NCBI RefSeq assembly: GCF_000424625.1
Contig: NZ_AUKG01000001.1
Span: forward strand, 1,674,001 to 1,738,000
DNA length: 64,000 nucleotides
Direction of reading: 5' to 3'
From: Conexibacter woesei Iso977N
GTDB lineage: Bacteria > Actinomycetota > Thermoleophilia > Solirubrobacterales > Solirubrobacteraceae
Shown piece after piece: positions 43,284 to 62,323 of this stretch (its first letter is position 1; every line of letters starts with the position of its first letter). The translations under genes and the position numbers were made by a program. A model generated the notes under the pieces. The model saw only the letters and a list, made by a program, of their open reading frames with translations. It was not told the origin of the DNA and ran no database searches.

Positions 43284-43302
43284 CCGTCGCGCCACGCGAC
43301 GG
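43284..43302 (+). terminator. hairpin between the ATPase and the first mce gene
   Basis: CCGTCGCG-CCA-CGCGACGG, an 8-bp perfect stem 6 nt after the ATPase stop. The next gene starts 145 nt later. It may be a partial terminator that lowers mce expression relative to the transporter core, or a processing signal. Confidence 0.4.
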
Positions 43303-43447
43303 TTCGCAACACCGTCTCAACAAACCATTTGAAAGATTGACGGCCGGTTCACCCCGGTCGTCCCACCGCAAGAACCGAACCCCACACGGTCCTGTCTCAG
43401 CAAGCTCCTTGTCCTGAATCGTTCGCCGCACCCTGCGAGGTGCGTCG

Positions 43448-44782
43448 ATGACCCTCGCCCGCGGTCTCGCCGTCGGGGCGCTCGGCGTCGCCATCGTGGT
43501 GGCGATCCTGCTGCTCACGGGCGGGAGCAAGCACGAGTACACGCTGGTCTTCCAGAACGCCGGCCAGCTGGTGAAGGGCAACGACGTCCAGATCGGCGGC
43601 CGCCGCGTCGGCAGCGTCAAGGACATCAGGCTGTCCAGGAACAACCTCGCCGACGTGAAGGTCGACCTCGACGAGCCCTACGCGCCGCTGCACCAGGGCA
43701 CGACCGCGGTGATCCGCTCCGGCTCGCTGTCGGGCGTGGCCAACCGCTTCATCTCGATCGCGCCCGGCCCGAACTCGGCGCCGAAGTTCGACGACGGCGC
43801 GACCCTCGGCCTCGACAAGACCACCACCTCGGTCGACCTCGACCAGCTCTTCGACACGATCGACCCCAAGACGCGCAAGGCGCTCCAGAACGTCATCAGG
43901 GGCTCGGCGACCCAGTACGAGGGCAAGGGCGCGAGGGCCAACGAGGCGCTGAAGTACTTCAACCCGACGTTGTCGACGACCTCGCGCCTGGTCAACGAGC
44001 TGGACTCCGACCAGAGCGCGCTCCAGGACTTCATCACCTACACCGCCAAGGCGACGACGGCGCTGGCGGCCAAGAGCGGCACGGTCACCGACCTCGTCAG
44101 CAACGCCAACACCTCGTCGGCCGCGATCGCCTCGGAGTCCGAGTCGCTCAACCAGGCGCTGCACGCGCTGCCCCAGACGCTGCGCCAGGCCAACACCACC
44201 TTCGTGAACCTGCGCTCGACGCTGGACGACCTCGACCCGCTGGTCGACGCCTCCAAGCCGGTCGCGCCCAAGCTCGCGCCGTTCTTCCGGCAGCTGCGCC
44301 CGCTGGTCACCGACGCCCGGCCGACGATCAGGGACCTGCAGACCCTGATCTCGCGCCCCGGCGCCGACAACGACCTGATCGACCTGCTGCGCAAGCAGCC
44401 GCGCCTGACCCAGGTCGCGACGCCGACGTTCAGGCACACGATCGCGGGCCTGCAGCAGGGCACGCCGGTCCTGCAGTTCATCCGCCCGTACGCGCCGGAC
44501 CTGATCGGCTGGTTCCGCGACTTCGGCCAGTCGACGGCCAACTACGACGCCAACGGCCACTTCGCGCGGATCTCGCCGATCGTCAACGCCTTCCAGTTCA
44601 CGAGCAACCCCGCCGGCGGGACGCTGACCGCGCTCAGGCCCTCCGAGCGCCAGGTCGGCCTGCAGTCCGGCAAGATCCGCCGCTGCCCGGGCTCCGCCAC
44701 GCAGGCGGCCAAGGACGGCTCCAACCCCTACGCCCCGGACGGCTCGGATTGCGATTCGAGCATCGTCCCGCCCGGCCCATGA
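43448..44782 (+). CDS. Mce-family protein 1
   Basis: A 444-residue MCE-domain protein: an N-terminal membrane anchor (about 5-25), the MlaD/MCE domain (about 30-115; YTLVFQNAGQLVKGNDVQIGGRRVGSV is its first strand pair, read as QNAGQLVKGNDVQIGG), a long helical region (about 150-330) and a Cys-containing C-terminus. In Mce systems six such subunits form a tube that passes lipid from the outer layers to YrbE. The protein begins 169 nt after the ATPase; the following gene overlaps it at ATGA. Confidence 0.92.
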   Translation: MTLARGLAVGALGVAIVVAILLLTGGSKHEYTLVFQNAGQLVKGNDVQIGGRRVGSVKDIRLSRNNLADVKVDLDEPYAPLHQGTTAVIRSGSLSGVANRFISIAPGPNSAPKFDDGATLGLDKTTTSVDLDQLFDTIDPKTRKALQNVIRGSATQYEGKGARANEALKYFNPTLSTTSRLVNELDSDQSALQDFITYTAKATTALAAKSGTVTDLVSNANTSSAAIASESESLNQALHALPQTLRQANTTFVNLRSTLDDLDPLVDASKPVAPKLAPFFRQLRPLVTDARPTIRDLQTLISRPGADNDLIDLLRKQPRLTQVATPTFRHTIAGLQQGTPVLQFIRPYAPDLIGWFRDFGQSTANYDANGHFARISPIVNAFQFTSNPAGGTLTALRPSERQVGLQSGKIRRCPGSATQAAKDGSNPYAPDGSDCDSSIVPPGP

Positions 44783-46515
44783 TGCGCGTCCGCCTCATCG
44801 CCGTCGGAGCTGCCGTGGCCGCCGCCGCGCTCGTCCTCGTGATCTTCGGGACGGGGGCCGGCGACGACCACAAGGGCGACTACAAGGTCCGCGCGATCTT
44901 CAACAACGCCTTCACGGTGATCCCGGGCGAGGACGTCAAGATCTCCGGCGTCAAGGTCGGCAAGATCCAGTCGCTGGACGTCACGCCCGACAACAAGGCC
45001 GCGGTCGTCCTCGACATCACCGAGGCGGGCTTCAAGGACTTCCGCACCGACGCGACCTGCACGATCCGCCCGCAGTCGCTGATCGGCGAGCGCTTCGTCG
45101 AGTGCACGCCGACGCAGCCGCGCGCCGACGGCGACAGGGAAGCGCCGTCGCTGCCCAAGATCAAGAGGGGCGCCGGCAAGGGCGAGTACCTGCTGCCGGC
45201 GACCAACACGATCAAGCCGGTCGACATCGACCTCGTGGGCAACATCATGCGGTTGCCCTACCGCCAGCGCCTGTCGATCATCATCAACGAGCTCGGCACC
45301 GGCCTGGCCGGCAACGGCGCGGCGCTGAACTCGGCGATCAGGCAGGCCGATCCCGCGCTGCAGGAGACCGACAAGGTCCTGGCGATCCTCGCCGACCAGA
45401 ACAGGACGCTGGCGCAGCTGGCCAAGAACGGCGACACGGTCCTGGCGCCGCTGGCGAGGGACAAGGAGAAGGTCTCCGACTTCATCGACAAGGCCAACAC
45501 GACGGCCGTCGCCAGCGCCGAGCGCCGCAGCGACATCGAGGCGTCGCTGCAGAGGTTCCCCGCGCTGCTGAACGAGCTCAAGCCGACGATGCAGCAGCTC
45601 GGCGACCTCGCCGACCAGATGACGCCGGTCCTGACCGACCTCGGCGCGCACGCGACCGACATCAACACCTTCATCAGGCAGCTCGGCCCGTTCTCGCAGG
45701 CCGGCATCCCGGCGCTGAAGTCGCTCGGCGACACGTCGGTCACCGGCCGTCAGGCGCTGCTCGCGGCCAAGCCGATCACGCAGGACCTGGGCACGTTCTC
45801 CAGGAACGCCAAGCCGCTGACCGAGAACCTCGACAGCCTGCTGACGAGCCTCCGGACGACCGGCGGCATCGAGCGCTTCATGGACTTCCTGTACTACCAG
45901 GCGGCCGCGACCAACGGCTACGACACGCTCGGCCACTACCTGCGCGCCGTGTTCGTCCTGACGTCCTGCACGACCTACTCGACGACCAGGATCCCGAACT
46001 GCGGCGCGAACTTCACGGCACCGGTCGCCAGCAGCGCGTCGGTGGCGCGCGCGTCGGCCAGGAGGATCCCGACGGTCGCCGACGTCAACCGCGAGATCGC
46101 CGACGGCCGCAGCCCGTACCTGGCACGCCAGGACGCGGTCGCCGCGGGCCTGGACCCGAAGCTGCTGACCGAGGACGCGAGCAAGGACGACAACTCGTCG
46201 TCGTCCAAGGACGACAAGAAGGGCTCGAGGTCGTCCGACAGCTCCTCGTCGAAGAGGTCGAGCACGCCGATCAGCCTGCCGGCCTCCGTCTTCCCGGGCA
46301 GCGCGCCTGCGAGCACGCCGGCGCCGAGCACCGGCACCACGACCGGCACGACCACCGGTGACACGCCGGCCGCGCCCGCGCCGACGACGAGCACCGGCAC
46401 CGCCACGACGCCCGACGCGGGCACGAGCAGCACGCCCGCGACCTCGAGCACGCCCAGCAGCGGCGGCTCCGGCGGCGCGACCCAGACCCTCCTCGACTAC
46501 CTCCTGGGGAACTAG
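44779..46515 (+). CDS. Mce-family protein 2 with low-complexity tail
   Basis: A 578-residue MCE protein: anchor (about 3-23), MCE domain (YKVRAIFNNAFTVIPGEDVKISGVKVG, as FNNAFTVIPGEDVKISG), helical region to about 380, then a Ser/Lys/Asp-rich stretch and a Thr/Ser/Pro/Gly-rich tail of about 70 residues at the C-terminus. The tail may span the wall or be glycosylated; that is inference. ATG 44779 overlaps the preceding stop; ATG 44782 is an equally possible start. Confidence 0.92.
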   Translation: MMRVRLIAVGAAVAAAALVLVIFGTGAGDDHKGDYKVRAIFNNAFTVIPGEDVKISGVKVGKIQSLDVTPDNKAAVVLDITEAGFKDFRTDATCTIRPQSLIGERFVECTPTQPRADGDREAPSLPKIKRGAGKGEYLLPATNTIKPVDIDLVGNIMRLPYRQRLSIIINELGTGLAGNGAALNSAIRQADPALQETDKVLAILADQNRTLAQLAKNGDTVLAPLARDKEKVSDFIDKANTTAVASAERRSDIEASLQRFPALLNELKPTMQQLGDLADQMTPVLTDLGAHATDINTFIRQLGPFSQAGIPALKSLGDTSVTGRQALLAAKPITQDLGTFSRNAKPLTENLDSLLTSLRTTGGIERFMDFLYYQAAATNGYDTLGHYLRAVFVLTSCTTYSTTRIPNCGANFTAPVASSASVARASARRIPTVADVNREIADGRSPYLARQDAVAAGLDPKLLTEDASKDDNSSSSKDDKKGSRSSDSSSSKRSSTPISLPASVFPGSAPASTPAPSTGTTTGTTTGDTPAAPAPTTSTGTATTPDAGTSSTPATSSTPSSGGSGGATQTLLDYLLGN

Positions 46516-47946
46516 ATGGGCCGGCGCCGCGGATCGCAGTCCATCGCAGCGAACCCCGTGCTGATCGGCGCGGCGACGACGCTCGTCGTCCTCGTCGCGG
46601 TCTTCCTGGCCTACAACGCCAACAACGGCCTGCCGTTCGTCCCGACCTACGGGCTGACGGCCGACGTCCCGAGCGCGGCGAACCTGGTCAAGGGCAACGA
46701 GGTCCGGATCGGCGGCACCCGCGTCGGCGTGGTCGACAAGATCACCCCGAAGCAGCTCAAGAACGGCAGGGTCATCGCCCAGCTGCACCTCAAGCTCGAG
46801 ACGACGATCAGGCCGCTGCCGGTCGACTCCACCATCTTGATCCGGTCGAAGTCCGCGCTCGGCCTCAAGTACGTGCAGATCACCAAGGGCACGTCGACCA
46901 GGGGCCTGGACGAGGGCGCGACGGTCCCGATCAAGCAGGCGACGCCGGCGCCGGTCGAGTTCGACGAGTTCCTCTCGACGTTCGACGACAAGACGCGCGC
47001 CGCCGCCCAGCAGCAGCTCAACGGCTTCGGCAACGCGCTCGCCGGCCGCGGCCAGGACCTCAACCGCGCGATCCAGGACTTCGACCCGCTGCTGACCCAG
47101 CTCGCGCCGGCGATGGCCAACCTGTCCGACAACCGCACGCAGCTCGCGCAGTTCACCGAGGCGCTCGCGCGCACGTCGGCGATCGTCGCGCCGGTCGCCG
47201 ATCAGCAGGCCGCGCTGTTCACCAACCTGGACACGACCTTCTCGGCCCTCGCGTCGATCGCCCGGCCCTACCTGCAGGACTCGATCAGCGGCGGCCCGCC
47301 GGCCGAGCAGACCGCGATCGAGGAGCTGCCCAAGCAGCGCCCGTTCCTGAAGAACAGCACCGAGTTCTTCGCCGACCTGCGCCCCGGCGTCGCCGCGCTC
47401 TCGGGCGCCGCCCACGACCTGGCCGACGCGTTCACGGTCGGCGTCCCGGCGCTGAAGCAGTCGGTGCAGCTCAACAAGGACCTCAAGCCGACCTTCGTGG
47501 CGCTGAAGTCGTTCGCCGAGGACCCGCTGGTCAAGCTCGGCGTCAACGACCTCAACGACACCGCGTCGATCGCCAACCCGCTGTTCGCCGCGATCACGCC
47601 GAGCCAGACGGTCTGCAACTACTGGACGCTGCTGTTCCGCAACGCCGCCTCGGTGCTGTCCGAGGGCGACACCAACGGCACCGGCCAGCGCTTCATGATC
47701 GTCGCCGCGCCGCAGGGCCCCAACAACGAGGGTGGCCCGTCGTCCGGTCCGGCCAGCGGCCCGACCAAGGACAACTACCTGCACGCCAACCCGTACCCGA
47801 ACACCGCCGCGCCGGGTCAGACGCGCGAGTGCGAGGCGGGCAACGAGCAGTACGCGGCGGGCAGGCAGGTCATCGGCAACGACCCGGGCAACCAGGGCAT
47901 CAACACCCAGAAGACGACGCTCTCGACCGACACCCCCAGGAACTGA
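46516..47946 (+). CDS. Mce-family protein 3
   Basis: A 476-residue MCE protein with an N-terminal helix (IGAATTLVVLVAVFLAY), the MCE domain (VPSAANLVKGNEVRIGGTRVG) and a helical region ending in a hydrophilic Asn/Gly-rich tail with one Cys pair (TVCNYW, TRECEAG). The start codon abuts the preceding stop directly, so translation is coupled. The next gene begins in its stop (TGATG). Confidence 0.92.
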   Translation: MGRRRGSQSIAANPVLIGAATTLVVLVAVFLAYNANNGLPFVPTYGLTADVPSAANLVKGNEVRIGGTRVGVVDKITPKQLKNGRVIAQLHLKLETTIRPLPVDSTILIRSKSALGLKYVQITKGTSTRGLDEGATVPIKQATPAPVEFDEFLSTFDDKTRAAAQQQLNGFGNALAGRGQDLNRAIQDFDPLLTQLAPAMANLSDNRTQLAQFTEALARTSAIVAPVADQQAALFTNLDTTFSALASIARPYLQDSISGGPPAEQTAIEELPKQRPFLKNSTEFFADLRPGVAALSGAAHDLADAFTVGVPALKQSVQLNKDLKPTFVALKSFAEDPLVKLGVNDLNDTASIANPLFAAITPSQTVCNYWTLLFRNAASVLSEGDTNGTGQRFMIVAAPQGPNNEGGPSSGPASGPTKDNYLHANPYPNTAAPGQTRECEAGNEQYAAGRQVIGNDPGNQGINTQKTTLSTDTPRN

Positions 47947-49631
47947 TGAGCAGCAAGGGCGACAAGCGCAAGCGCGTTCTGCGCAAGGACCGGACGGGTG
48001 CCAACCCGTTCACGGTCGGCCTGCTCGTGCTCGTGCTCGCCGGGATCGTCGTCTACGCCGGCTTCTCCAAGCACGTGCCGTTCACGCACGGCTTCCGCGT
48101 CAAGGCCGTCTTCACCAACGCCAACAACATCCGGCCCAACTCGCCGGTCCGGATCGCGGGCGTGAACATCGGCAAGGTCAAGAAGGTCACGGCCTACAAG
48201 GGCGGCGACGGCAACATGTCGCTCGTCACGATGGAGATCGACAAGGCCGGCCTGCCGATCCACAAGGACGCGACGCTGAAGGTCCGGCCGCGCATCTTCC
48301 TCGAGGGCAACGAGTTCGTCGACCTGTCGCCGGGCACGCCCGAGGCGCCGACGCTGAGCGACGGCGACACGATCCCGTCCACGCAGACCGCGGCGCCCGT
48401 GCAGTTCGACCAGATCCTGACCGCGCTGCAGTCCGACACGCGCGACAGCCTCAAGAGGCTGCTCGACGGCTACGGCACCGCGCTGACCCACCAGCCGACC
48501 GCCGCCGAGGACAAGACGCAGGATCCCGACGTCCAGGGCAAGACGGCCGCCGAGGCGCTGAACAGGTCGATCGACTACGCGCCGGGCGCGCTGAAGAACG
48601 CGTCGATCGTCAACCAGGCGTTCCTGGGCCTCGACGAGCACGACCTCTCCGGCCTGGTCGCCAACACCGCGAAGGTCACCAAGGCGCTCGGCTCCGACCC
48701 GGCCCAGCTCCAGGGCTTCGTCACGAACTTCAACACCACCTTGAGCGCGCTGGCCGACGAGCAGGACAACCTGAAGGCCACGATCGGCGAGCTCGGCCCG
48801 ACGCTGACGCACACCGACAGGGCGCTGGTCAGCCTCAACGCCTCGTTCCCGAACACGCGCGCGTTCGCCAAGGAGATCCTGCCCGGCGTCAAGGAGACCC
48901 CGGCGACGATCGACGCGGCCGAGCCGTGGATCGCGCAGGCGCGCAAGCTCGTCGGGCCCGACGAGCTGGGCGGCCTGACCAGGGAGCTCAAGCCGACGAC
49001 CGTCGACCTCGCCAGGCTCGTGGACGGGACGCTGACCGCGCTGCCGCAGGCCGACCTCGTCTCCCAGTGCATCACGCACACGATCCTGCCGACCGGCGAC
49101 ATCAAGATCCAGGACGGCCAGTTCACCTCCAACGAGGAGAACTACAAGGAGTTCTGGTACGCCATGGTCGGCCTCGCGGGCGAGTCGCAGAACTTCGACG
49201 GCAACGGCCACTACGTCCGCTTCGCGGTCGGCGGCGGCGACCAGACGGTCTCGACCGGCAAGTACGGCGGCGCCGCGGGCGAGAAGCTCTACGGCCGCGT
49301 CAACAACCCGCCGCTGGGCACGCGCCCCGCCTTCCCGGGCAAGCGCCAGCCGTACAACCACACCGCGGCGTGCAAGGACCAGAGGCTGCCGGACCTCAAC
49401 GGCGCGAAGACCGGCGGGGCCGACGGCGGCGGTGGCACGCCGGCTCCCGCGGCGCCGGCCGTGACGACCCCGACGGTGACCACGCCCGCCGGGACCGTGC
49501 CGTCGACCACGACGCCGCTGCCCGTGCCCGCGCTGGGCGTGTCGACGAGGTCGTCCAGCGCGTCCGGCGAGTCGCTGACCGCCGAGCTGGTCGATCGCCT
49601 CAACCCCTTCCGCAAGGGGGCGGGCAAGTGA
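47946..49631 (+). CDS. Mce-family protein 4
   Basis: A 561-residue MCE protein: a basic start (KGDKRKRVLRKD), a membrane helix (VGLLVLVLAGIVVYAGF), the MCE domain (AVFTNANNIRPNSPVRIAGVNIG), a helical stretch and a C-terminal region with Cys in VSQCITHT and AACKDQR, then a Pro/Thr-rich linker and a short basic end. Long helical parts such as those seen here build the channel in Mce tubes. The stop overlaps the following GTG start. Confidence 0.92.
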   Translation: MSSKGDKRKRVLRKDRTGANPFTVGLLVLVLAGIVVYAGFSKHVPFTHGFRVKAVFTNANNIRPNSPVRIAGVNIGKVKKVTAYKGGDGNMSLVTMEIDKAGLPIHKDATLKVRPRIFLEGNEFVDLSPGTPEAPTLSDGDTIPSTQTAAPVQFDQILTALQSDTRDSLKRLLDGYGTALTHQPTAAEDKTQDPDVQGKTAAEALNRSIDYAPGALKNASIVNQAFLGLDEHDLSGLVANTAKVTKALGSDPAQLQGFVTNFNTTLSALADEQDNLKATIGELGPTLTHTDRALVSLNASFPNTRAFAKEILPGVKETPATIDAAEPWIAQARKLVGPDELGGLTRELKPTTVDLARLVDGTLTALPQADLVSQCITHTILPTGDIKIQDGQFTSNEENYKEFWYAMVGLAGESQNFDGNGHYVRFAVGGGDQTVSTGKYGGAAGEKLYGRVNNPPLGTRPAFPGKRQPYNHTAACKDQRLPDLNGAKTGGADGGGGTPAPAAPAVTTPTVTTPAGTVPSTTTPLPVPALGVSTRSSSASGESLTAELVDRLNPFRKGAGK

Positions 49632-50971
49632 GGCTCGCGATCCGCAAGTACAGGTACGACTTCCTCGCGATGGTCGGGATCTTCCTGATCGCGCTGGTCG
49701 TCGGCGGCTTCATCCTCGGCCACCAGCGCTTCTACCTGCCCAAGTGGTTCCCGGTCGTCGGCACCGAGTTCGTCACCTACAAGGCGGACTTCGCGACCGC
49801 GCAGTCGGTCACGCCGGGCCAGGGCCAGACGGTCAACGTCGCGGGCGTGCCGGTCGGCGAGATCTCCAACGTGACGCTGAAGGACGGGCGCGCGCAGATC
49901 TCGATGAAGATCCGCAAGAAGTACGCGCACATCTACAAGAACGCGACGGCGCTGCTGCGGCCGAAGACCGGCCTCAACGACATGATCATCGAGCTGACGC
50001 CCGGCACCCGCCGCGCCGGTGAGCTGAACCACAGCCACGACGTCATCCCGATCACGCAGACGCTGCCCAACGTCAACACCGACGAGTTCCTGGCCGCGCT
50101 CGACGGCGACACGCGCAGCTACCTGCAGCTGCTGGTCGCCGGCGCCGGCGAGGGCCTGGACGGCAACGCCAACAACCTGTCGGCGACGTTCCGGCGCTTC
50201 GAGCCGACCAACCGCGACATCTTGAAGATCACCAAGGCGCTGTCGGTCCGCCGCGACAACATCGCCCGCTCGATCCACAACTTCAAGGAGCTGACCGAGG
50301 CGGTCGGCACCAAGGACAGGCAGCTGACGTCGCTGATCGGCGCCAGCAACGCGGTCTTCTCCTCGTTCGCCAGGCAGGACGCCAACCTGCGCAAGACGCT
50401 GCAGCTGCTGCCCTCGACGCTGAGGACGACCGACGTCGCGGTCACCAAGGCCGACAAGCTCGGCCAGACGCTCGGCCCGACGCTCGGCAAGCTGCGCCCC
50501 GGCGCCCGCGCGCTCGGCCCGTCGCTGAAGCAGTCACGCCCGTTCTTCGAGCAGACCACGCCGGTGATCGAGAAGCAGCTGCGCCCGTTCGCCCGCGACG
50601 CGCTGCCGACGGTCAAGGTCCTGCGCCCGGCCGCCCGCGACCTCGCGGCGCTGACCCCGCACTTCACCTCGGTGCTGAGGACGGCCAACTACCTGCTCAA
50701 CACGTTGGCCTACAACCCGCCCGGCGACGACGAGGGCTACCTGTTCTGGACGTCGTGGCTGAACCACATCGGCCCGACCGTCTTCTCGACGCAGGACGCC
50801 CACGGCCCGATCCGCCGCGGCGCGCTGTTCTTCTCGTGCTCGGGCCTCGGCCTGCTGGACACGCTGAAGACGGTCAACCCGCAGCTGGGCACGATCATCG
50901 GGCTGACCAACGCGCCGGCCAGGAACGACGTCTGCGCGTCCAGCTCGCAGGCCAACGGGACGAACGGGTAG
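49628..50971 (+). CDS. Mce-family protein 5
   Basis: A 447-residue MCE protein beginning with GTG in a GTGA overlap. It has an N-terminal helix (FLAMVGIFLIALVVGGFIL), an MCE domain (ADFATAQSVTPGQGQTVNVAGVPVG), a long helical region (about 150-350) and an aromatic-rich C-terminal segment (GYLFWTSWLNHIGP) with Cys in FFSCSGLG and NDVCASS. The variant VNVAGVPVG fits the 'VRIAGVxVG' consensus of the domain. Confidence 0.92.
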   Translation: MRLAIRKYRYDFLAMVGIFLIALVVGGFILGHQRFYLPKWFPVVGTEFVTYKADFATAQSVTPGQGQTVNVAGVPVGEISNVTLKDGRAQISMKIRKKYAHIYKNATALLRPKTGLNDMIIELTPGTRRAGELNHSHDVIPITQTLPNVNTDEFLAALDGDTRSYLQLLVAGAGEGLDGNANNLSATFRRFEPTNRDILKITKALSVRRDNIARSIHNFKELTEAVGTKDRQLTSLIGASNAVFSSFARQDANLRKTLQLLPSTLRTTDVAVTKADKLGQTLGPTLGKLRPGARALGPSLKQSRPFFEQTTPVIEKQLRPFARDALPTVKVLRPAARDLAALTPHFTSVLRTANYLLNTLAYNPPGDDEGYLFWTSWLNHIGPTVFSTQDAHGPIRRGALFFSCSGLGLLDTLKTVNPQLGTIIGLTNAPARNDVCASSSQANGTNG

Positions 50972-50987
50972 AGGGGGAGGCGAGCGC

Positions 50988-52511
50988 ATGAACAAGCAGG
51001 TCCCCAGCCTCGGCAAGATCCTCGTGATGGTCGGCTTCGCGCTGTCCTGCTTCGGCCTGCTGCTGTTCCTGTGGCTGGCCTTCGGCGGGCCGACGCCGCT
51101 GAAGGCCAAGTCCTACCGCTTCAAGGTGTCCTTCGGCGAGGCGACGCAGCTCGCCCACGAGGCCGACGTCCGGATCTCCGGCGTCCCGGTCGGCAAGGTC
51201 AAGGACATCGTCACCAACAGGCAGACCGGCCGCTCCGACGCGACGATCGAGCTCGACAGCGAGTACGCGCCGCTGCCCTCCGACGCCAAGGCGATCCTGC
51301 GCCAGAAGACGCTGCTGGGCGAGACCTACGTCGAGCTGACGCCGGGCACGTCCAACGCGAAGGCGATCCCCGACAACGGGCGCTTGGCGACCGGCCAGGT
51401 CTCCGACACCGTCGAGCTCGACGAGATCCTGCGCACGTTCGACCCGCAGACGCGCAGGGCGTTCCAGACCTGGGTCCAGACCCAGGCCCAATCGCTGACC
51501 GGCCGCGGCCAGGCGCTCAACGACGCGCTCGGCAACCTCGCGCCGTTCGCCGAGGACACCACCAAGATCCTCGAGGTGCTGAACGCGCAGAAGGCCGGCG
51601 TGCGCCAGCTCGTGCGCAACACCGGCGTCGTCTTCGACGCGCTCAGCGCGCGTGACGACCAGCTCGCGGGCGTCATCACCAACTCCAACAAGGTCTTCGC
51701 GACGACCGCCGCGCGCGACGCCGACCTGCAGGCCGCGTTCAAGGCGCTGCCGACGTTCGAGAGGGAGTCCTCGACGACGCTCAAGCGCCTGACGAAGTTC
51801 AGCCAGAACGCGAACCCGGTGGTCACCGACCTCAAGCCGGCGGCCAGGGAGATCAGCCCGACCTTCACGCAGCTCGCCGCGCTGGCGCCGGACCTCAAGG
51901 CGCTGTTCCGCGACATCGACCCGCTGGTCAAGGCCTCCAAGAAGGGCCTGCCGGCGACGACCGAGTTCCTGAACCAGCTGCACCCGCTGCTGGCGAACTT
52001 CGACGCGCCGCTGAAGCAGCTCAACCCGATCCTCGACGGCGCGAACCTGTACTCCAGGGAGATCAACGCGTTCTTCGCGAACTCGACGGCCGCGACCCAG
52101 GCGACCGCGCCGGTCAGCGACTCCGCCGAGCCCGCGCACTACCTGCGCACGAGCAACCCGCTCAACCCGGAGATGCTGGCGCAGTATCCGAACCGGCTGC
52201 CGACCAACCGCACCAACGCGTACGCGTTCCCGGGCGACAGCCTGTCGCTCAAGGACGGCCTGGCGTCGTTCGAGACGCGTCAGTGCTCGGGCGCGGCGGT
52301 CACCGCGGCCCCGACCCTCGGGCCGGCGGTCGACGGCGTGCTGACGCAGACGCTGCGCGACAACATCCTGAAGTTCGCCCTGAACGGCGGGAACGTCGTG
52401 GCGCCGCCGTGCAAGCAGCAGGCGCGCTTCAGCCTCAACGGGCAGCTCACGCAGTTCCCGCAGGTGCGGCCGAGCACCAAGGGCGTCCAGGCGGGGCTCC
52501 CCCAGCCGTAG
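50988..52511 (+). CDS. Mce-family protein 6
   Basis: A 507-residue MCE protein, sixth and last of the set. It has a membrane helix (ILVMVGFALSCFGLLLFLWLAF, about 11-32), an MCE domain (VSFGEATQLAHEADVRISGVPVG), a helical region rich in Ala/Asp/Lys and a C-terminus with Cys in RQCSGAAV and APPCKQQ. GGGGGAGG precedes the ATG. It carries the same architecture as the other five, so the operon can form a hetero-hexamer. Confidence 0.92.
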   Translation: MNKQVPSLGKILVMVGFALSCFGLLLFLWLAFGGPTPLKAKSYRFKVSFGEATQLAHEADVRISGVPVGKVKDIVTNRQTGRSDATIELDSEYAPLPSDAKAILRQKTLLGETYVELTPGTSNAKAIPDNGRLATGQVSDTVELDEILRTFDPQTRRAFQTWVQTQAQSLTGRGQALNDALGNLAPFAEDTTKILEVLNAQKAGVRQLVRNTGVVFDALSARDDQLAGVITNSNKVFATTAARDADLQAAFKALPTFERESSTTLKRLTKFSQNANPVVTDLKPAAREISPTFTQLAALAPDLKALFRDIDPLVKASKKGLPATTEFLNQLHPLLANFDAPLKQLNPILDGANLYSREINAFFANSTAATQATAPVSDSAEPAHYLRTSNPLNPEMLAQYPNRLPTNRTNAYAFPGDSLSLKDGLASFETRQCSGAAVTAAPTLGPAVDGVLTQTLRDNILKFALNGGNVVAPPCKQQARFSLNGQLTQFPQVRPSTKGVQAGLPQP

Positions 52512-52541
52512 GAGACCGGCGCGCGGTTGCTGCGCGCCAGG

Positions 52542-52547
52542 TACATT
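52542..52547 (+). promoter_or_regulatory. -10-like box TACATT ahead of the MMPL gene
   Basis: TACATT ends 9 nt before ATG 52557 and would give a leaderless secondary transcript for the MMPL gene within the mce operon. No good -35 box was seen. Confidence 0.3.
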
Positions 52548-52556
52548 GAGCGCTTG

Positions 52557-55262
52557 ATGGGTCGGCTGCCGCGCATCCTGGCCGCCGTCATGGGCACGGC
52601 CGCCCGTCGCCCGTTGGCGATCGGCCTGCTGGTGACGGTGCTCGCGCTCGCAGGCGCCGCGCTCGCGCTGCGCCTCAGCCCGACGACCGCGTCCAAGACG
52701 CTCGTCGGGTCGTCGTCGCAGTCCTACAAGGCGACGGAGACCGACAACAGGCTGTTCGGCGAGGACGCGGTCTACGTCCTGGTCAAGGGCAGGGTCTCGA
52801 ACCTCGTCCTGACGAGCGACCTCGAGCGGCTCGTCGCGCTGGAGGGCTGCCTCGGCGGCAACGTCCCGAAGAGGGCGACGCCGGTCGGCGGCTGGTCGTC
52901 GGCGTGCGGGCGGATGGGGAAGACCAGGCCCGCGCAGGTCGTGTTCGGGCCGGGGACGTTCCTCAACGAGTCGGTCACGCAGATCGGCGACGAGTACAAC
53001 GCGCAGCTGAGGTCGCTGGGCAGCGCGGGCCAGAGGGAGGGCGAGGCCGCCTACAAGCTGGCGATCGCCAAGGGCTACTCGAAGGCGAAGGCCAACAGGC
53101 TGGCCGGCGAGGCCAAGTCGGTCGCCGCCAACCAGCAGCTGCTGCAGGCCGCGCAGGTCGCGATGAAGTACGGGATCCTGACCGCGCCGCAGCTCAACGA
53201 CCCGGGCTTCATCGCCTCGATCGTCTTCCAGGGCGGCAAGGCGGCGGGGACGCCGAAGGCGCGTTTCGCCTACCTGTTCCCGAACGCCAACGCGTCGCTG
53301 ATCCAGGTGCGGCTCAAGCCGGGGCTGAGCGACGGCGCGCGCAAGGCCGCGATCGCCAACGTGCGCGACGCGGTCGCCATGAGGGACTTCGCGCCGCAGA
53401 ACGGCGAGCAGTACGTGGTGACCGGCGCGCCGGTGGTGCTGTCGGACCTGACGACCAAGATCACCGACTCGATCGCGCTGCTGCTGATCGCCGCGGTGTT
53501 GGTGATGGCCTTGGTCCTGGCGCTCGTGTTCCCGGCGCGGCGGCGACTGCTGCCGTTGTTGGTGGCCTTGGCCGCGGTGGCGATCACGTTCGGCGCGCTG
53601 TCGCTGATCGGCGCGTCGCTGACGATGGCGTCGGTGGGCGTGGTCCCGGTGCTGATCGGGTTGGCGGTCGACTACGCGATCCAGCTGCAGGCGCGGATCG
53701 GCGAGCGCTCGGGGCCGGTCCCGACGCGGGCCGAGATGACGCGGGCGGTCGCGCACGTCGCGCGCTCGGGCGCGCCCGCGGTGGCGGTCGCGGCCTGCGC
53801 GACGGCGGCGGGGTTCCTGGTGCTCGGCGTGTCGCCGGTCCCGATGGTCCAGGGCTTCGGGCTGCTGCTGGTCGCGGGGATCTTCGTGGGGCTGGCGACC
53901 GCGCTGACGCTGGGGACGGCGGTGCTCGTGGGGCTGAGCGGCGGCGGCGCCGGCCGGTCGCGGCGGTTGCCCGCGTCGGTCGTGGGCGCGGGCGAGCTGC
54001 TGGGCTCCAGCGCGCGCGGCGCGGGCGAGCTGCTGCGCGAGAACCGCGGGACCCAGTGGGTCCTCGCGCGTGGGCGCGGGGTCCGCGGCCGTGCGCTGAC
54101 CGCGGCGGTCCGGCGGCCGGAGCGGGTCCTGGCGATCGGCCTGGCGGTCGCGGTCGTCGGCTGGGCCGCCGACACGCAGACCAAGGTCGAGTCCGACGTC
54201 ACCAAGCTCGTGCCGCAGAACCTCCCGGCGCTGCAGGACCTGACGGCGCTGGAGAAGGCGACGAGCGTCGGCGGGCAGATCGACGTCGTCGTCCAGAGCG
54301 ACAGGCTGACGACGCCCGCGGTCATCAACTGGATGTCGGCCTACCAGCAGCGGCTCTTGAAGCGCTACGGGTACACCGAGGCGCGCGGCTGCGGCGAGGC
54401 CGAGCTGTGCCCGGCGTTCTCGCTGCCGGACCTGTTCGGCGGGGCCAACGGCAGGGGCAAGGTCACGAGCGCGGCGCAGGTCACCGACCTGCTCGACGCG
54501 ATCCCGGCGTACTTCTCGCAGGCCGTCGTGACGAAGGACCGCAGGACCGCCACGATGGCGTTCGGGATCCGGCTGATGCCGCTGGCCCACCAGAAGGACG
54601 TCATCGACGCGATGCGCTCCGAGCTGCATCCGCCCGCGGGCGTCAACGCGCAGCTCGCGGGCCTGCCGGTGCTGGCGGCCGACGCGAACGCCGCGGTGTC
54701 GTCGCCGTGGCGGCGGATCGTGCTGCTGGTGCTGGGCCTGCTGGCGGTCGGCGCGGTGTTGTTGGTGGCCTTCCGGTCCTGGCGGCGCGCGCTGACCCCG
54801 CTGCTGCCGATCGCGCTGGCGACCGGCTGGAGCGCGCTGGTGCTGTTCGCGACGCGCGTGCCGTTGAACCCCATGTCGGTGACGATGGGCGCGCTGGTCG
54901 TCGCGATCTCGACCGAGTTCTCGGTCCTGCTGGCGGAGCGGTTCCGGGCCGAGCGCGCTGCGGGGCTGGAGCCTTTGGCGGCGTTGGAGAAGACCTACAG
55001 GTCGACGGGCGCGGCGGTGCTGGCGTCGGGCGTGACGGCGATCGCGGGCTTCGCGGTGCTGGTGCTCAGCGACATCCGGATGTTGCGCGACTTCGGCGCG
55101 GTGACGGTCGTCGACCTGGCCGTGTCGTTGTTGGGGGTGTTGCTCGTCCTGCCCTCGGCGCTGGTGCTGGGGGAGCAGTGGAAGCCGGCGCGCGTGCGCC
55201 TGCGCGTGCCGCGCCCGCGGCTGCCGTGGACGGCGCAGGCGCAGGCGGAGCCTGACGCATGA
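52557..55262 (+). CDS. MMPL/RND-family transporter
   Basis: A 901-residue RND-type membrane protein with two halves, each with one helix, an outer domain and five further helices. The first half begins AARRPLAIGLLVTVLAL and has the helix block LLLIAAVLVMALVLALVF to GLSGGG; the second restarts at RRPERVLAIGLAVAVVGW. Conserved Asp in GLAVDYAIQL (first half) corresponds to an RND proton-relay site; the matching position in the second half is AISTEFSVLLAER (Glu). It lies 45 nt after mce6 and is likely to export or hand over lipids in the same pathway. ATG 52557 is used; TTG at 52527 would add ten residues. Confidence 0.9.
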   Translation: MGRLPRILAAVMGTAARRPLAIGLLVTVLALAGAALALRLSPTTASKTLVGSSSQSYKATETDNRLFGEDAVYVLVKGRVSNLVLTSDLERLVALEGCLGGNVPKRATPVGGWSSACGRMGKTRPAQVVFGPGTFLNESVTQIGDEYNAQLRSLGSAGQREGEAAYKLAIAKGYSKAKANRLAGEAKSVAANQQLLQAAQVAMKYGILTAPQLNDPGFIASIVFQGGKAAGTPKARFAYLFPNANASLIQVRLKPGLSDGARKAAIANVRDAVAMRDFAPQNGEQYVVTGAPVVLSDLTTKITDSIALLLIAAVLVMALVLALVFPARRRLLPLLVALAAVAITFGALSLIGASLTMASVGVVPVLIGLAVDYAIQLQARIGERSGPVPTRAEMTRAVAHVARSGAPAVAVAACATAAGFLVLGVSPVPMVQGFGLLLVAGIFVGLATALTLGTAVLVGLSGGGAGRSRRLPASVVGAGELLGSSARGAGELLRENRGTQWVLARGRGVRGRALTAAVRRPERVLAIGLAVAVVGWAADTQTKVESDVTKLVPQNLPALQDLTALEKATSVGGQIDVVVQSDRLTTPAVINWMSAYQQRLLKRYGYTEARGCGEAELCPAFSLPDLFGGANGRGKVTSAAQVTDLLDAIPAYFSQAVVTKDRRTATMAFGIRLMPLAHQKDVIDAMRSELHPPAGVNAQLAGLPVLAADANAAVSSPWRRIVLLVLGLLAVGAVLLVAFRSWRRALTPLLPIALATGWSALVLFATRVPLNPMSVTMGALVVAISTEFSVLLAERFRAERAAGLEPLAALEKTYRSTGAAVLASGVTAIAGFAVLVLSDIRMLRDFGAVTVVDLAVSLLGVLLVLPSALVLGEQWKPARVRLRVPRPRLPWTAQAQAEPDA

Positions 55263-59068: not shown

Positions 59069-60373
59069 TCAGGCGACGCGGCGGCGACCGTGGTCGCCCG
59101 GGCCCGGCAGCGGGCCGTGCTCGGCCTCGAAGCTCGCCTTGACCGCGCTGAACGCGTCGAGCGCCTCGTCGAGCGTCGCGCGCTCGTGCGTGGCCATCAC
59201 CGACGTGCGCAGCAGCGACTGCCCGTGCGGCACCGCGGGGTGCAGCGCGGTGTTGACGAAGACGCCGGACTCGTAGAGGCCCTTCCACATGAGCCCGGTC
59301 TGCCAGTCGTCGCCGATCAGCACGGGGACGATGGGGGTGACGATGTCGGCGCCGTACGGGTGGCCGTCCGGCAGCGTCTGCGGCTCGACGACCGCGAAGC
59401 CGCGCTCCTCCAGCCCGTCGCGCCAGTAGCGCGCGTTGTCCTGGACGGCGCGCAGCAGCGGCGGCCCGGCCTCGCTCCGGACGACCCGGAGCGCGGCGAG
59501 CGCCGCGCCCGTCGCGGCCGGGACGGCGGAAGCGGTGAAGAGGAACGTCCGCGACTGGATCCGCAGGTACTCGATGACGTCGGCCTTGCCGGCGACGAAC
59601 CCGCCGCACGACGCCAGCGACTTCGAGAACGTGCCCATCCGCAGGTCGACGCGGTCCTCGACGCCGAAGAGCTCCGAAGCGCCCGCGCCGCGGTCGCCGA
59701 GCACGCCGGCGCCGTGGGCCTCGTCGACCATCAGGCGCGCGCCGTAGGCCTCGCAGAGGTCGCAGATCTCGGGCAGCGGGGCGAGGTCGCCCTCCATGCT
59801 GAACACGCCGTCGACCACGACCAGGACGCCGCCGCCGTCGCCGGCGGCGCGGTCCAGCATCTTCTCGAGCTTGTCGAGCTTGTTGTGGCGGAACGGGCGC
59901 AGCTTGGCGCGCGAGAGGATGCAGCCGTCGAGGATCGACGCGTGGTCGCCGGAGTCGACGATCACGGTGTCGCCCGGCGCGAGGATCGTCCCGAGCGTCC
60001 CGACGTTGGCCTGGTTGCCGGTCGTGAAGACGATCGCGTCCTCGGTGCCCATCCACTCGGCGATCTCGGCCTCGAGCGTCAGGTGCATCTCGGTCGTGCC
60101 GTTGAGCAGGCGCGAGCCGGTCATCCCGGTGCCGTACCGCTTGAGCGCGTCGGCCGCTCCGTCGATCACGCTCTGGTCCTCGGTCAGCCCGAGGTAGTTG
60201 TTGCCGCCGAGCATGATGCGCGAGCGGCCCTCCATCTCCACCACCGGCTTGGCCGGCGACTCCATCACCCGGAAGTAGGGGACCATGTCGGCCTCGCGGG
60301 CCGCCTGGAGGATAGCGAGGCGCTCGTGGTTGCGAGCCTTCTCGAAGACGTCGATCTGCGCGCGTTGGGGCAC
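59069..60373 (-). CDS. spt: alpha-oxoamine synthase, serine palmitoyltransferase-like
   Basis: A 434-residue PLP enzyme that joins an amino acid to an acyl-CoA with loss of CO2. Family residues are His144 (GDHASILDG, stacks on PLP), Asp217 (VDEAHG) and Lys251 (GTFSKSLAS, Schiff base). GNNYLGLT, YGTGMTGSRLLNGTTEMH and the C-terminal GVFVNTALHPAVPHGQSLLRTS (in parts VFVNTALHPAVPHG and LLRTSVMATH) fit bacterial serine palmitoyltransferase better than BioF or Kbl; the length, 30-45 residues longer than these, agrees. Divergent neighbours are an acyltransferase and a fatty-acid hydroxylase, so a first step of ceramide-type lipid synthesis is likely. BioF-type activity is not excluded by sequence alone. 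Confidence 0.75.
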   Translation of the reverse strand: MPQRAQIDVFEKARNHERLAILQAAREADMVPYFRVMESPAKPVVEMEGRSRIMLGGNNYLGLTEDQSVIDGAADALKRYGTGMTGSRLLNGTTEMHLTLEAEIAEWMGTEDAIVFTTGNQANVGTLGTILAPGDTVIVDSGDHASILDGCILSRAKLRPFRHNKLDKLEKMLDRAAGDGGGVLVVVDGVFSMEGDLAPLPEICDLCEAYGARLMVDEAHGAGVLGDRGAGASELFGVEDRVDLRMGTFSKSLASCGGFVAGKADVIEYLRIQSRTFLFTASAVPAATGAALAALRVVRSEAGPPLLRAVQDNARYWRDGLEERGFAVVEPQTLPDGHPYGADIVTPIVPVLIGDDWQTGLMWKGLYESGVFVNTALHPAVPHGQSLLRTSVMATHERATLDEALDAFSAVKASFEAEHGPLPGPGDHGRRRVA

Positions 60374-60402
60374 CGAAAGAGCGTACCTGGACGTTCACTC
60401 GC

Positions 60403-60408
60403 TAGGTT
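60403..60408 (+). promoter_or_regulatory. -10 box TAGGTT ahead of the acyltransferase gene
   Basis: TAGGTT ends 11 nt before ATG 60420 in the 46-bp gap shared with the divergent aminotransferase gene. No ribosome-binding site is seen, so the message is probably leaderless. Confidence 0.4.
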
Positions 60409-60419
60409 GGTGCGTCCCC

Positions 60420-61553
60420 ATGGCCGTCACCGTCCGCACCGCTCGTTCCTTCCGCGACGTCGGGCGGTTCATCGACCTGCCCAAGCGCCTGCACGCCGGG
60501 ACGCCGTTCGTCCCGCAGCTGAAGATCGAGCGCCGCCTGTTCCTGAGCAGGCGCCCGCGGCTGTCGACCTACGCGGGGCGGATCGACTGGGAGCTGTTCC
60601 TGGCCGAGCGCGACGGGCGCGTCGTCGGGCGCATCAGCGCCCAGATCGACAAGTCCTACAACAAGTACCACGACGAGCAGCGGGGCTGGTTCGGGTTCTT
60701 CGACTGCGAGGACGACCCGGAGGCCGCCGGCGCGCTGGTGACCGCCGCCGAGGACTGGCTGCGCACGCGCGGGATGACGCGCATGACCGGGCCGGCCGAC
60801 TTCACGATGAACGACGAGTCCGGGATCGTCATCGAGGGCCACGACCTGCCGCCGATGGTCCGCCAGCCCTGGCACCCGCCGTACTACCAGCACTTGCTCG
60901 AGCACGCCGACGTCGCGCTGGACAAGGAGGTCGACCTCTTCATGTGGGAGCTCGAGATCTCCGACCGCGAGCAGATGCTGCCGATCCTGCCCGAGCTGGC
61001 CAGGGACGCGCGCGAGAAGCACAACGTCAGGATCCGGCGGATGTCGCGCAAGAACCTGCGCCGCGACATGGACGTCTTCGGCGAGATCTACAACCGCGCG
61101 TGGCGGCGCAACTTCGGCTTCGTCCCCTACGACGAGCACGACCTCGACCAGTACGCGGCCGAGATGCAGCTGGCCTACAACAAGGACTGGTTCATGGTCG
61201 CCGAGGTCGAGGACGAGCCGATCGCGATCGCCATCACCATCCCGGACCTCAACCAGGTCCAGAAGAAGATGAACGGCAGGCTGCTGCCGCTGGGGTGGTG
61301 GCACTTCCTGCGCCGCAACTCCTACATCGACAAGGTCCGTGTCGGGTTCCTGGGGGTCAAGCCCAAGTTCCAGCACACGGGTGCGGCGGCCGCGCTGTAC
61401 GTCGAGCACTTCGACGTCGCCGAGCGCCACAAGCACATCCACTCCGGTGAGATGGGCTGGATCCTGGAGACCAACCGCGCCATGAACCGCGGGATGGAGG
61501 CCATGAACGGCCGCATCGTCAAGAAGTACCGTGTGTACGGGCGCGACTTGTAG
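60420..61553 (+). CDS. GNAT-like acyltransferase, bacterial ceramide synthase-like (bCerS)
   Basis: A 377-residue protein of the large GNAT-type family that includes the bacterial ceramide synthase described in Caulobacter. Marks are RVVGRISAQID, QRGWFGFFDCEDDPEAA (about 78-95), the stretch MTGPADFTMNDESGIVIEGHDLPPM (as GPADFTMNDESGIVIEG and LPPMVRQPWHPPYYQHLL) and a second GNAT-like half with VGFLGVKPKFQHTGAAAALY. If it acts like bCerS it adds a fatty acyl group to the long-chain base made by the divergent Spt-like enzyme. The ATG is at 60420, probably leaderless. The exact substrate is inference from context. Confidence 0.75.
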   Translation: MAVTVRTARSFRDVGRFIDLPKRLHAGTPFVPQLKIERRLFLSRRPRLSTYAGRIDWELFLAERDGRVVGRISAQIDKSYNKYHDEQRGWFGFFDCEDDPEAAGALVTAAEDWLRTRGMTRMTGPADFTMNDESGIVIEGHDLPPMVRQPWHPPYYQHLLEHADVALDKEVDLFMWELEISDREQMLPILPELARDAREKHNVRIRRMSRKNLRRDMDVFGEIYNRAWRRNFGFVPYDEHDLDQYAAEMQLAYNKDWFMVAEVEDEPIAIAITIPDLNQVQKKMNGRLLPLGWWHFLRRNSYIDKVRVGFLGVKPKFQHTGAAAALYVEHFDVAERHKHIHSGEMGWILETNRAMNRGMEAMNGRIVKKYRVYGRDL

Positions 61554-61579
61554 GGGTAGTTCCCGATCATCCGATTTGC

Positions 61580-61595
61580 GATTGCGCACGCAATC
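61580..61595. promoter_or_regulatory. inverted repeat upstream of the hydroxylase gene
   Basis: GATTGCG-CA-CGCAATC, 7-bp perfect arms with a 2-nt spacer, covers the expected -35 region for the -10 box TAAGGT at 61612. This is a good candidate for an operator controlling the hydroxylase. Confidence 0.5.
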
Positions 61596-61611
61596 ACGTT
61601 GCGAGAGGCGA

Positions 61612-61617
61612 TAAGGT
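61612..61617 (+). promoter_or_regulatory. -10 box TAAGGT, leaderless start of the hydroxylase gene
   Basis: TAAGGT ends 7 nt before ATG 61625 and follows the inverted repeat at 61580-61595 by 16 nt. No ribosome-binding site is present. Confidence 0.45.
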
Positions 61618-61624
61618 TGGCCTA

Positions 61625-62323
61625 ATGGCACGGTCCGACGATCTCAAGGCTTCACCGCCGATGTTCGAGAACCGGATGCTGGACCGCTTCACGCGCGTCC
61701 ACCCGTCGGTCCCGCCGTTGCTCTTCGTGCCGATCATCGCCGTGATGCTCGTCGCGGGCCTCTCGCGCGTGAGCACGGTGACGGGGATCGTGCTGCTCGC
61801 CGCGGGCTACGTCTTCTGGACGCTGTTCGAGTACTGGCTGCACCGCGTCGTCTTCCACTTCGAGCCGTACACGTCGGAGTTCGGGATGCGGCTGCACTGG
61901 ATGATCCACGGCGTCCACCACGACCACCCGAACGACCCGCTGCGGCTGGTCATGCCGCCGTCGGTCTCGCTGCCGCTGGGCGCGGCGGTGCTGGCCGCGT
62001 TCTGGGCGGTGCTCGGGTGGGACAACGCGCTGGTGTTCGGCGGCGGGTTCCTGGCCGGGTACTTGGCCTACGACATGCTCCATTACCACGTGCACCACCA
62101 CAAGCCGCGCACGGCCGTGGGGCACAAGCTGCGCGAGCTGCACATGCGCCATCACTTCCAGGACGACGAGCGCGGGTTCGGGATCAGCGCGCCGTACTGG
62201 GACTACGTGTTCGGGACCGCGTCGCATGCGACGGGCAACCGGAGCGTCCCGGCGCGCGAGCAGAACGGAGCGACAGCGACGGCCGCGACCGCCTCGACGG
62301 ACCGCACGTCGGGCGCTCGCTGA
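61625..62323 (+). CDS. fatty acid hydroxylase, FA2H/Scs7-like
   Basis: A 232-residue membrane di-iron hydroxylase with the complete histidine set: HRVVFH (73-78), HWMIHGVHHDH (91-101), HYHVHHH (153-159) and HMRHH (173-177). NDPLRLVMPP and FGISAPYWDYVFGT match the C2-hydroxylases of ceramide fatty acids (yeast Scs7, animal FA2H) more than general sterol desaturases. Four hydrophobic segments lie between. With Spt-like and bCerS-like genes next to it, 2-hydroxylation of the amide-linked acyl chain is the natural reading. It starts 71 nt after the acyltransferase with its own promoter. Confidence 0.82.
   Translation: MARSDDLKASPPMFENRMLDRFTRVHPSVPPLLFVPIIAVMLVAGLSRVSTVTGIVLLAAGYVFWTLFEYWLHRVVFHFEPYTSEFGMRLHWMIHGVHHDHPNDPLRLVMPPSVSLPLGAAVLAAFWAVLGWDNALVFGGGFLAGYLAYDMLHYHVHHHKPRTAVGHKLRELHMRHHFQDDERGFGISAPYWDYVFGTASHATGNRSVPAREQNGATATAATASTDRTSGAR

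What the first reader, a model, noticed from the sequence alone, without database searches (positions are those of the whole stretch)
59069..62323. Candidate ceramide/sphingolipid-type synthesis locus in an actinobacterium
Seen: an alpha-oxoamine synthase with Spt-like motifs, divergent from a bCerS-type GNAT acyltransferase, followed by a hydroxylase with the full FA2H/Scs7 histidine pattern including RLVMPP. Known: in Caulobacter, Spt and bCerS (with a reductase, CerR) make ceramide, and FA2H-type enzymes hydroxylate its acyl chain. Inference: this cluster makes a 2-hydroxylated ceramide or related lipid, a class not normally expected in actinobacteria. No CerR-like gene is in the window, so the product could be a keto-ceramide or the reductase may be elsewhere.
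Basis: partly seen in the sequence, partly recalled or inferred. Interest (0 to 1): 0.78.

Follow-up and report, generated by a model that had tools for sequence, protein, structure and literature searches.

The report
Ceramide-type lipid genes in soil actinobacteria
Three neighbouring genes in a soil actinobacterium look like enzymes that build and hydroxylate a ceramide-like lipid; the first two recur through the sampled members of its order, yet the reductase that normally finishes bacterial ceramide was not found in this genome.

Summary
59069-60373(-) is an alpha-oxoamine synthase closest to serine palmitoyltransferase (Spt), 60420-61553(+) a tandem-GNAT acyltransferase of the family found in Spt clusters, 61625-62323(+) an FA2H/Scs7-type hydroxylase. 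A separate BioF exists; placement with BioF or with Kbl is rejected.

Synthase and acyltransferase are divergent in 45 of 49 fetched loci. In a class sample the acyltransferase is in 53 of 53 genomes of the window's order and 7 of 146 others, the hydroxylase in 47 of 53 and 2 of 146.

No CerR-type reductase was recognised: left-out references score 207-263 bits, the best own candidate 129-159. Rubrobacter, Streptomyces and Nonomuraea have a CerR-like gene beside the pair.

What seems new is an order-wide version without a recognised CerR, with a eukaryote-like hydroxylase, often beside an Mce/MMPL lipid-transport operon. Substrates and products are inferred; no lipid data were available.

The parts
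59069..60373 (-). Alpha-oxoamine synthase of Spt type (434 aa, GTG start), expected to condense an acyl thioester with serine to 3-ketosphinganine
   Evidence: Pfam/NCBIfam, PDB Spt E 4e-92, alignment, tree
60374..60419 (.). 46-bp stretch between the divergent called starts; in relatives the distance between the aligned ends is 7-146 bp
   Evidence: 45 of 45 loci that hold both genes are divergent
60420..61553 (+). Tandem-GNAT N-acyltransferase of the bCerS/YghO family
   Evidence: alignment with cluster GNATs; fold
61625..62323 (+). FA2H/Scs7-type di-metal hydroxylase without a cytochrome b5 domain (232 aa), expected to 2-hydroxylate the acyl chain
   Evidence: distribution
40706..55262 (+). 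Neighbouring Mce-type lipid transport operon (MlaE permease, ABC ATPase, MlaD/Mce proteins, MMPL at 52527-55262); a conserved neighbour, functional link not shown
   Evidence: Pfam on six of its proteins; MMPL upstream in 20 of 25 loci with at least 8.5 kb of upstream sequence

Best explanation
The three genes encode a bacterial ceramide-type pathway. Step 1 (inferred from family): the Spt-type synthase condenses an acyl-CoA or acyl-ACP with L-serine and releases CO2, giving 3-ketosphinganine. Step 2 (inferred): the tandem-GNAT acyltransferase N-acylates it to a keto-dihydroceramide, the order of steps proposed for Caulobacter. Step 3 (inferred): the Scs7-like di-metal hydroxylase puts a 2-hydroxyl on the amide-linked acyl chain, with electrons from an unlinked redox partner, since the protein has no b5 domain. 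Step 4: no CerR orthologue was recognised in this genome, so the ketone is either left in place or, which I think more likely (about 2 to 1), reduced by an SDR not recognised here, encoded elsewhere. Shown: homology, gene arrangement, conservation through the sampled order, failure to recognise CerR. Inferred: substrates, products, order of steps.
For: Spt is the best family on each sequence measure used: NCBIfam SerpalmtaseCFB 397 bits against Kbl 360 and BioF 343; PDB Spt 312 bits against 254 for the best Kbl. In a 27-row tree the window clade and the Spt-like rows stand apart from Kbl and BioF with 100/98 support; the AU test rejects the window clade with Kbl (p 0.022) and with BioF (p 0.005). 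GNAT homologues sit in clusters with an Spt-type synthase and a CerR-like SDR: E. coli PN43 (YghO), Sphingomonas, and in Actinomycetota Rubrobacter, Streptomyces and Nonomuraea, the last with the same divergent synthase/GNAT layout. Pair divergent in 45 of 49 loci. The hydroxylase co-occurs with the GNAT (47 of 53 order genomes, 2 of 146 others) and lies next to it in the same direction (window, L009, L010, L011, G121, G426), next to it convergent (G346), or convergent with one methyltransferase-like gene between (L013, L024). Acidisoma has hydroxylase, synthase, SDR and GNAT in one stretch. FA2H homologues occur in myxobacteria; a cited title ties them to sphingolipid formation (passages of PMC10002949).
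Against: The synthase misses the curated Spt cut-offs (397 against 640, 373 against 500); so do the Rubrobacter, Streptomyces and Aureispira cluster synthases. The Spt-like side of the tree also holds a Priestia plasmid synthase with a higher Spt score (522 bits) and no GNAT or CerR-like gene among its annotated neighbours, so Spt-likeness alone does not prove ceramide. Holding the window clade with Kbl plus BioF together is not rejected (p 0.33), so the branching among Spt-like groups and the root are unresolved. Serine was not distinguished from other amino acids. The Acidisoma synthase, on a long branch, fell with a PKS-linked Streptomyces synthase (86/86) and not with the Spt-like rows, so that cluster may make something else. 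The hydroxylase is near the pair in only 5 of 45 loci with both genes (39 of the 45 have at least 1.5 kb downstream), and 6 of 53 order genomes lack it. Co-occurrence follows one order, so shared descent explains much of it. No reductase was identified. No Caulobacter sequence could be fetched: the references are called ceramide clusters from their gene content. No lipid data.
Confidence: 0.67

Rival explanations
1. The synthase uses another amino acid (alanine or glycine for 1-deoxy bases, cysteate for sulfonolipids), so the product is an N-acylated amino-ketone lipid but not a ceramide.
For: Curated Spt cut-offs are missed; the alpha-oxoamine fold is shared; 1-deoxysphingolipids are reported from bacteria in the abstract of PMC11334938 (passage).
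Against: Cysteate acyltransferase 28eh scores 204 bits against 312 for Spt; the stretch GTFSKSLAS and the region GVFVN..PAVP match Spt 8guh.
Confidence: 0.18
2. The synthase is BioF or Kbl (biotin or threonine metabolism) and its neighbours are unrelated.
For: Family-level similarity only: Kbl 360 and BioF 343 bits.
Against: A BioF over cut-off lies elsewhere in the genome; none of the ten upstream window proteins run through Pfam is a threonine or biotin enzyme; both placements rejected by the AU test; divergent from the acyltransferase in 45 of 45 loci that hold both.
Confidence: 0.03
3. Synthase and acyltransferase work as proposed, but the hydroxylase acts on another lipid (free fatty acid, phospholipid, carotenoid) and its adjacency here is accidental.
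For: It is away from the pair in the six order genomes whose hydroxylase surroundings were read, and missing from 6 of 53 that have the GNAT.
Against: It is Scs7-like, the ceramide acyl hydroxylase; it recurs by the GNAT in more than one arrangement and in the Acidisoma stretch.
Confidence: 0.25

Closest known systems
Caulobacter Spt-bCerS-CerR ceramide pathway (Stankeviciute et al. 2022, not held; passages of PMC11087976)
   Same: Spt-type synthase and GNAT acyltransferase; acylation thought to precede reduction
   Different: No CerR orthologue recognised in this genome; no ACP or acyl-AMP ligase among the neighbours run through Pfam; an FA2H-type hydroxylase beside the GNAT; actinobacterial host
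Actinobacterial Spt-GNAT-CerR clusters (Rubrobacter radiotolerans plasmid L091, Streptomyces NBC_01001 L090, Nonomuraea L092)
   Same: Same synthase and GNAT families; Nonomuraea has the same divergent layout
   Different: They carry a CerR-like SDR directly after the GNAT; the window has the hydroxylase there
E. coli YghO cluster (plasmid of strain PN43, L095)
   Same: GNAT 33% identical over its length; Spt beside it
   Different: Proteobacterial-type Spt over the curated cut-off, with ACP, FAAL and CerR-like SDR; no hydroxylase annotated in the 21 kb read
Acidisoma plasmid cluster (L157)
   Same: Hydroxylase, synthase and GNAT together
   Different: A classical SDR (PF00106) takes the place of CerR; its synthase did not group with the Spt-like rows; glycosyltransferases and an LTA synthase family protein nearby
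Yeast Scs7 / mammalian FA2H
   Same: Hydroxylase core with the His clusters and RLVMPP (Scs7 aligned)
   Different: No cytochrome b5 domain

Membership tests
Serine palmitoyltransferase (Spt) | Curated NCBIfam equivalog cut-off (NF047600/NF047599/NF047603) | tested here: not met
   397/373/299 bits against 640/500/670; Rubrobacter, Streptomyces and Aureispira cluster synthases also miss. So filed as Spt-like, not as Spt
Serine palmitoyltransferase (Spt) | Groups with Spt and not with BioF/Kbl | tested here: met
   100/98 support in a 27-row tree; AU rejects joining Kbl (0.022) or BioF (0.005), not both together (0.33); three long rows left out
Serine palmitoyltransferase (Spt) | PLP lysine and catalytic His/Asp/Arg (roles recalled) | tested here: met
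   Alignment to 8guh: K251, H144, D217, H220, R389 conserved
Serine palmitoyltransferase (Spt) | Uses L-serine | not testable with these tools
   needs enzyme assay or labelling
Bacterial ceramide synthase (bCerS) | Full-length homology to the GNAT of Spt clusters | tested here: met
   30-37% identity to 8 GNATs beside Spt-type or related synthases; reference clusters assigned by gene content, Caulobacter bCerS itself not fetched
Bacterial ceramide synthase (bCerS) | GNAT fold | tested here: met
   tandem GNAT, Z 22.1, 297 residues, rmsd 4.0 to 5kf2
Bacterial ceramide synthase (bCerS) | N-acylates 3-ketosphinganine | not testable with these tools
   needs enzyme assay
FA2H/Scs7 fatty acid 2-hydroxylase | Di-metal His clusters in Scs7 register | tested here: met
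   phmmer alignment to 4zr1, residues 8-199
FA2H/Scs7 fatty acid 2-hydroxylase | N-terminal cytochrome b5 domain of the eukaryotic enzymes | tested here: not met
   232 aa, only FA_hydroxylase in Pfam
Complete Caulobacter-type pathway (Spt, bCerS, CerR) | CerR orthologue in the genome | tested here: not met
   best own SDR 129-159 bits against 207-263 for left-out references. Caveats: tree backbone weak (53/33) and one own SDR, C1:797522, falls among the CerR rows there, though at 128.5 bits and without the tail motif; genome 96.55% complete
BioF | Curated cut-off TIGR00858 | tested here: not met
   343 against 426.45; another gene in the genome reaches 453.9

The most novel reading that the evidence does not exclude
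Solirubrobacterales as an order make a CerR-independent ceramide-class lipid: N-(2-hydroxyacyl)-3-ketosphinganine left as a keto-ceramide, or finished by an unrecognised reductase, and moved by the neighbouring Mce/MMPL system, so that an Mce operon would be a sphingolipid transporter.
Probability: 0.2. Interest if true: 0.78.

Novelty: new variant of a known kind. Interest (0 to 1): 0.56.

Why it matters
Ceramide-type lipids in Gram-positive bacteria are known from few cases. If an entire order of soil actinobacteria makes them, without a recognisable CerR and with a eukaryote-like 2-hydroxylase, then looking for Spt plus bCerS plus CerR (as PMC11334938 says ref. 38 did; passage) would miss them. 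It gives natural comparisons: genera with and without the hydroxylase, families with and without CerR. The conserved Mce/MMPL neighbour is a concrete, if weak, lead for the unknown sphingolipid transporter that PMC11087976 mentions (passage).

Tried and rejected
CerR elsewhere in the genome: the best profile hit, C1:110359-111300, rejected by score, tree and lack of the tail motif; C1:1657488 is HpnA-like (265.6 bits, under that family's cut-off); C1:797522 scores 128.5 bits and its full frame lacks the motif, but in the tree it and a same-class SDR (L178) fell among the CerR rows on a weak backbone (53/33), so it is the least excluded candidate. The motif (W, then T/S/Y, then C/A) was picked after seeing the references, so it is post hoc. 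In some searches only 7 and 11 first-look candidates per genome were scored; in the own genome all 108 were. Four order genomes (G463, G390, G408, G441) have SDRs at 198-207 bits, touching the weakest left-out reference, but they group with the own candidate (96/96) and lack the motif; 7 further order genomes with hits at 160-166 bits were not put in the tree. A classical SDR like that of Acidisoma: only generic matches, best 66 bits, 31%. Reductase beside the unlinked hydroxylase genes of six genomes: no match to the CerR or classical SDR queries next to it; one extended SDR (22-26% identity, GDP-mannose-dehydratase-like by Pfam) about 7 kb away in L162.

Loci without the synthase: L050, L051, L052 and L055 of 49; L055 is cut close to the contig end; L165 (about 9 kb each side of the GNAT in G165, whose contig has the length of the L052 contig) has none. 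The 49 loci and the G genomes overlap (L016 and G322 match in position), so they are not independent samples. The Mce neighbourhood as proof of function: not accepted, because other neighbours (a VOC protein, an AlkA-like protein) are conserved too, so it may be plain synteny; five of 25 long loci lack the MMPL.

Trees: the first had very long rows (own third synthase, Acidisoma, Streptomyces L125), left out. L173 dropped out of the SDR tree because my slice of that short locus was empty; the same gene in L179 has the WTC tail and 29-37% identity to five references. In one search the slices of L143 and L146 were empty or nearly so and that of L140 partial, so their 'no motif' lines mean nothing. 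In one search the query called AlkA was read in a wrong frame; its hits were not used.

Papers: no paper listed for 'Solirubrobacter' and 'sphingolipid' (8), 'Conexibacter' and 'ceramide' (1) or 'Thermoleophil' and 'sphingolipid' (8) looks, by title, to be about lipids of this order; listings only, texts not read. Subscription papers are mostly not held.
Full report
WHAT IS THERE. The window is G000:C1:1674001-1738000 of a 5.7-Mb, 9-contig genome, 96.55% complete. Its nearest relatives for the acyltransferase are Conexibacter-labelled and other Solirubrobacterales contigs, so the host is taken to be a member of the Solirubrobacterales (Thermoleophilia, Actinomycetota); that name is an inference. 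The called starts of synthase and acyltransferase are 46 bp apart on opposite strands; the hydroxylase follows the acyltransferase after 71 bp.

SYNTHASE. NCBIfam ranks Spt first (397 bits, CFB type), above Kbl (360) and BioF (343), but under every curated cut-off. As yardsticks, synthases of Sphingomonas, Roseomonas, E. coli PN43 and Parabacteroides pass an Spt cut-off; those of Rubrobacter, Streptomyces 01001, Aureispira, Nonomuraea L112 and Priestia do not. Priestia scores higher (522) than the window though no GNAT or CerR-like gene is annotated around it, so the score alone is not proof. The nearest solved structure is Spt (312 bits); the best Kbl chain has 254. In a 27-row tree the window clade and Spt-like rows are separated from Kbl and BioF at 100/98; holding the window clade with Kbl or with BioF is rejected (p 0.022 and 0.005), holding it with both together is not (p 0.33), so the exact place among Spt-like groups is open. 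The genome has a BioF over its cut-off elsewhere.

ACYLTRANSFERASE. Pfam sees only a weak GNAT match. A model from an alignment of 27 sequences (mean pLDDT 87.2) is a tandem GNAT (Foldseek E 3.6e-13 to 5kf1; Z 22 to 5kf1/5kf2). A tblastn search of plasmids gave 44 records, of which eight regions were read. The same GNAT occurs with an Spt-type synthase and an extended SDR in E. coli PN43 (YghO, with ACP and fatty acyl-AMP ligase), Sphingomonas parapaucimobilis, Rubrobacter radiotolerans, Streptomyces NBC_01001, Aureispira and Nonomuraea; in Roseomonas an Spt and an ACP lie about 10 kb away. Identity to the window protein is 30-37%, with 22 residues invariant in 11 sequences. I could not fetch the tested Caulobacter proteins; these clusters are called ceramide clusters from their content.

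HYDROXYLASE. It is Scs7-like (E 1.6e-30) with the His groups and RLVMPP aligned, and without a b5 domain. PMC10002949 (abstract and passages) says FA2H rests on four His motifs and that myxobacteria have FA2H-like enzymes; one of its references, by title, ties them to sphingolipid formation.

CONSERVATION. Of 49 loci fetched, 45 have the synthase divergent from the GNAT, with 7-146 bp between the aligned ends. The hydroxylase is near in 5 of the 45. In 296 Actinomycetota genomes the GNAT (E 1e-15 or better) is in 9 of 9 of the window's order and 20 of 287 others; the hydroxylase in 8 of 9 and, weakly (at most 46.7 bits), 3 of 287. In 199 class genomes the GNAT (E 1e-40) is in 53 of 53 order genomes and 7 of 146 others, the hydroxylase (E 1e-25) in 47 of 53 and 2 of 146. 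The two samples overlap. The order total of 53 is read from the kinship column: non-matches are listed nearest kin first, and none of the same order appears; 119 non-matches were not printed. The two hydroxylase genomes outside the order lack the GNAT at the cut-off used. Because both genes mark one order, co-occurrence alone is weak. Position is better evidence: next to the GNAT in the same direction (window, L009, L010, L011, G121, G426), next to it convergent (G346), or convergent with one methyltransferase-like gene between (L013, L024). The Acidisoma stretch adds a distant case, but its synthase did not group with the Spt-like rows.

THE MISSING REDUCTASE. A profile of six cluster SDRs finds three genomes of one family, one of them 99.7% identical to the Rubrobacter gene, at 331-423 bits right after the GNAT (Rubrobacter is in the profile, so this is partly circular). 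Left out one at a time, the six references score 207-263, the best own SDR 129-159. In the class sample 11 of 53 order genomes have a hit at E 1e-46 or better, best 206.9; the four best, tested with the own candidate, form a group (96/96) that the tree keeps apart from the CerR rows and lack the tail motif of all six references. The tree's backbone is weak (53/33), and another own SDR, C1:797522 (128.5 bits, no motif), falls among the CerR rows. Only 7 or 11 candidates per genome were scored. G401, of the same class but another family, has a CerR-like gene with the motif (293 bits) and a partial GNAT match. So CerR was not recognised in the window's genome, nor in the order genomes as far as they were examined. 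Acidisoma and Novosphingobium carry a classical SDR with the hydroxylase (54% identical to each other), which shows a possible substitute, but the own genome has only generic matches.

NEIGHBOURHOOD. Upstream lies an Mce operon with MlaE, ABC, MlaD proteins and MMPL. The MMPL is upstream in 20 of 25 loci with enough sequence. PMC11087976 (passages) notes that no transporter for these lipids has been identified. Since other neighbours are conserved as well, I treat this as a lead only.

KNOWN OR NEW. Passages of PMC11743623, PMC12134224 and PMC11087976, all citing Stankeviciute et al. 2022 (not held; otherwise recalled), report ceramides from Streptomyces aurantiacus, the genes in several Actinobacteria, and likely producers among smaller Gram-positive groups. 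PMC11334938 (passages) counts 40 phyla of potential producers and says that bCerS and CerR are in many cases not near Spt. So the kind is known. Three searches of the held library showed no paper on sphingolipids of this order (listings only). The order-wide, hydroxylase-bearing version without a recognised CerR is a new variant, by sequence only.

Noticed in passing
L092:5000-13300 (Nonomuraea): Synthase seen in two overlapping frames, divergent from GNAT plus CerR-like gene; next to them a PAP2-looking and an MMPL-looking protein (read by eye, no profile run).
   Followed up: partly
L157:7950-13140 (Acidisoma plasmid): Hydroxylase, synthase, classical SDR and GNAT in one stretch with glycosyltransferases and an LTA synthase family protein: possible CerR-independent glycolipid cluster; the synthase is on a long branch.
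   Followed up: partly
L050, L051, L052: GNAT homologues (47-49%) without a synthase in the flanks held; G441, G455 and G459 carry two GNAT copies, in G459 in tandem.
   Followed up: no
L013:11128-11784 and L024:2693-3316: A methyltransferase-like gene (Methyltransf_16) lies between GNAT and hydroxylase, on the hydroxylase strand: possible further tailoring enzyme.
   Followed up: partly
window 58259-58804 (-): Small basic protein conserved near the synthase in 38 loci; only a sub-threshold H2TH match; looks like an actinobacterial integration host factor (recalled).
   Followed up: no
L041: A contig titled Bifidobacterium breve carries Solirubrobacterales-like genes in the same order; the record's title is probably wrong.
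   Followed up: no
L179 (G401:C105): A genome of the same class but another family has a CerR-like gene with the WTC tail and a partial GNAT match on a 5.9-kb contig.
   Followed up: partly
L161:1-4108: In G165 the unlinked hydroxylase lies about 5 kb from what look, by similarity to L013, like Mce genes.
   Followed up: no
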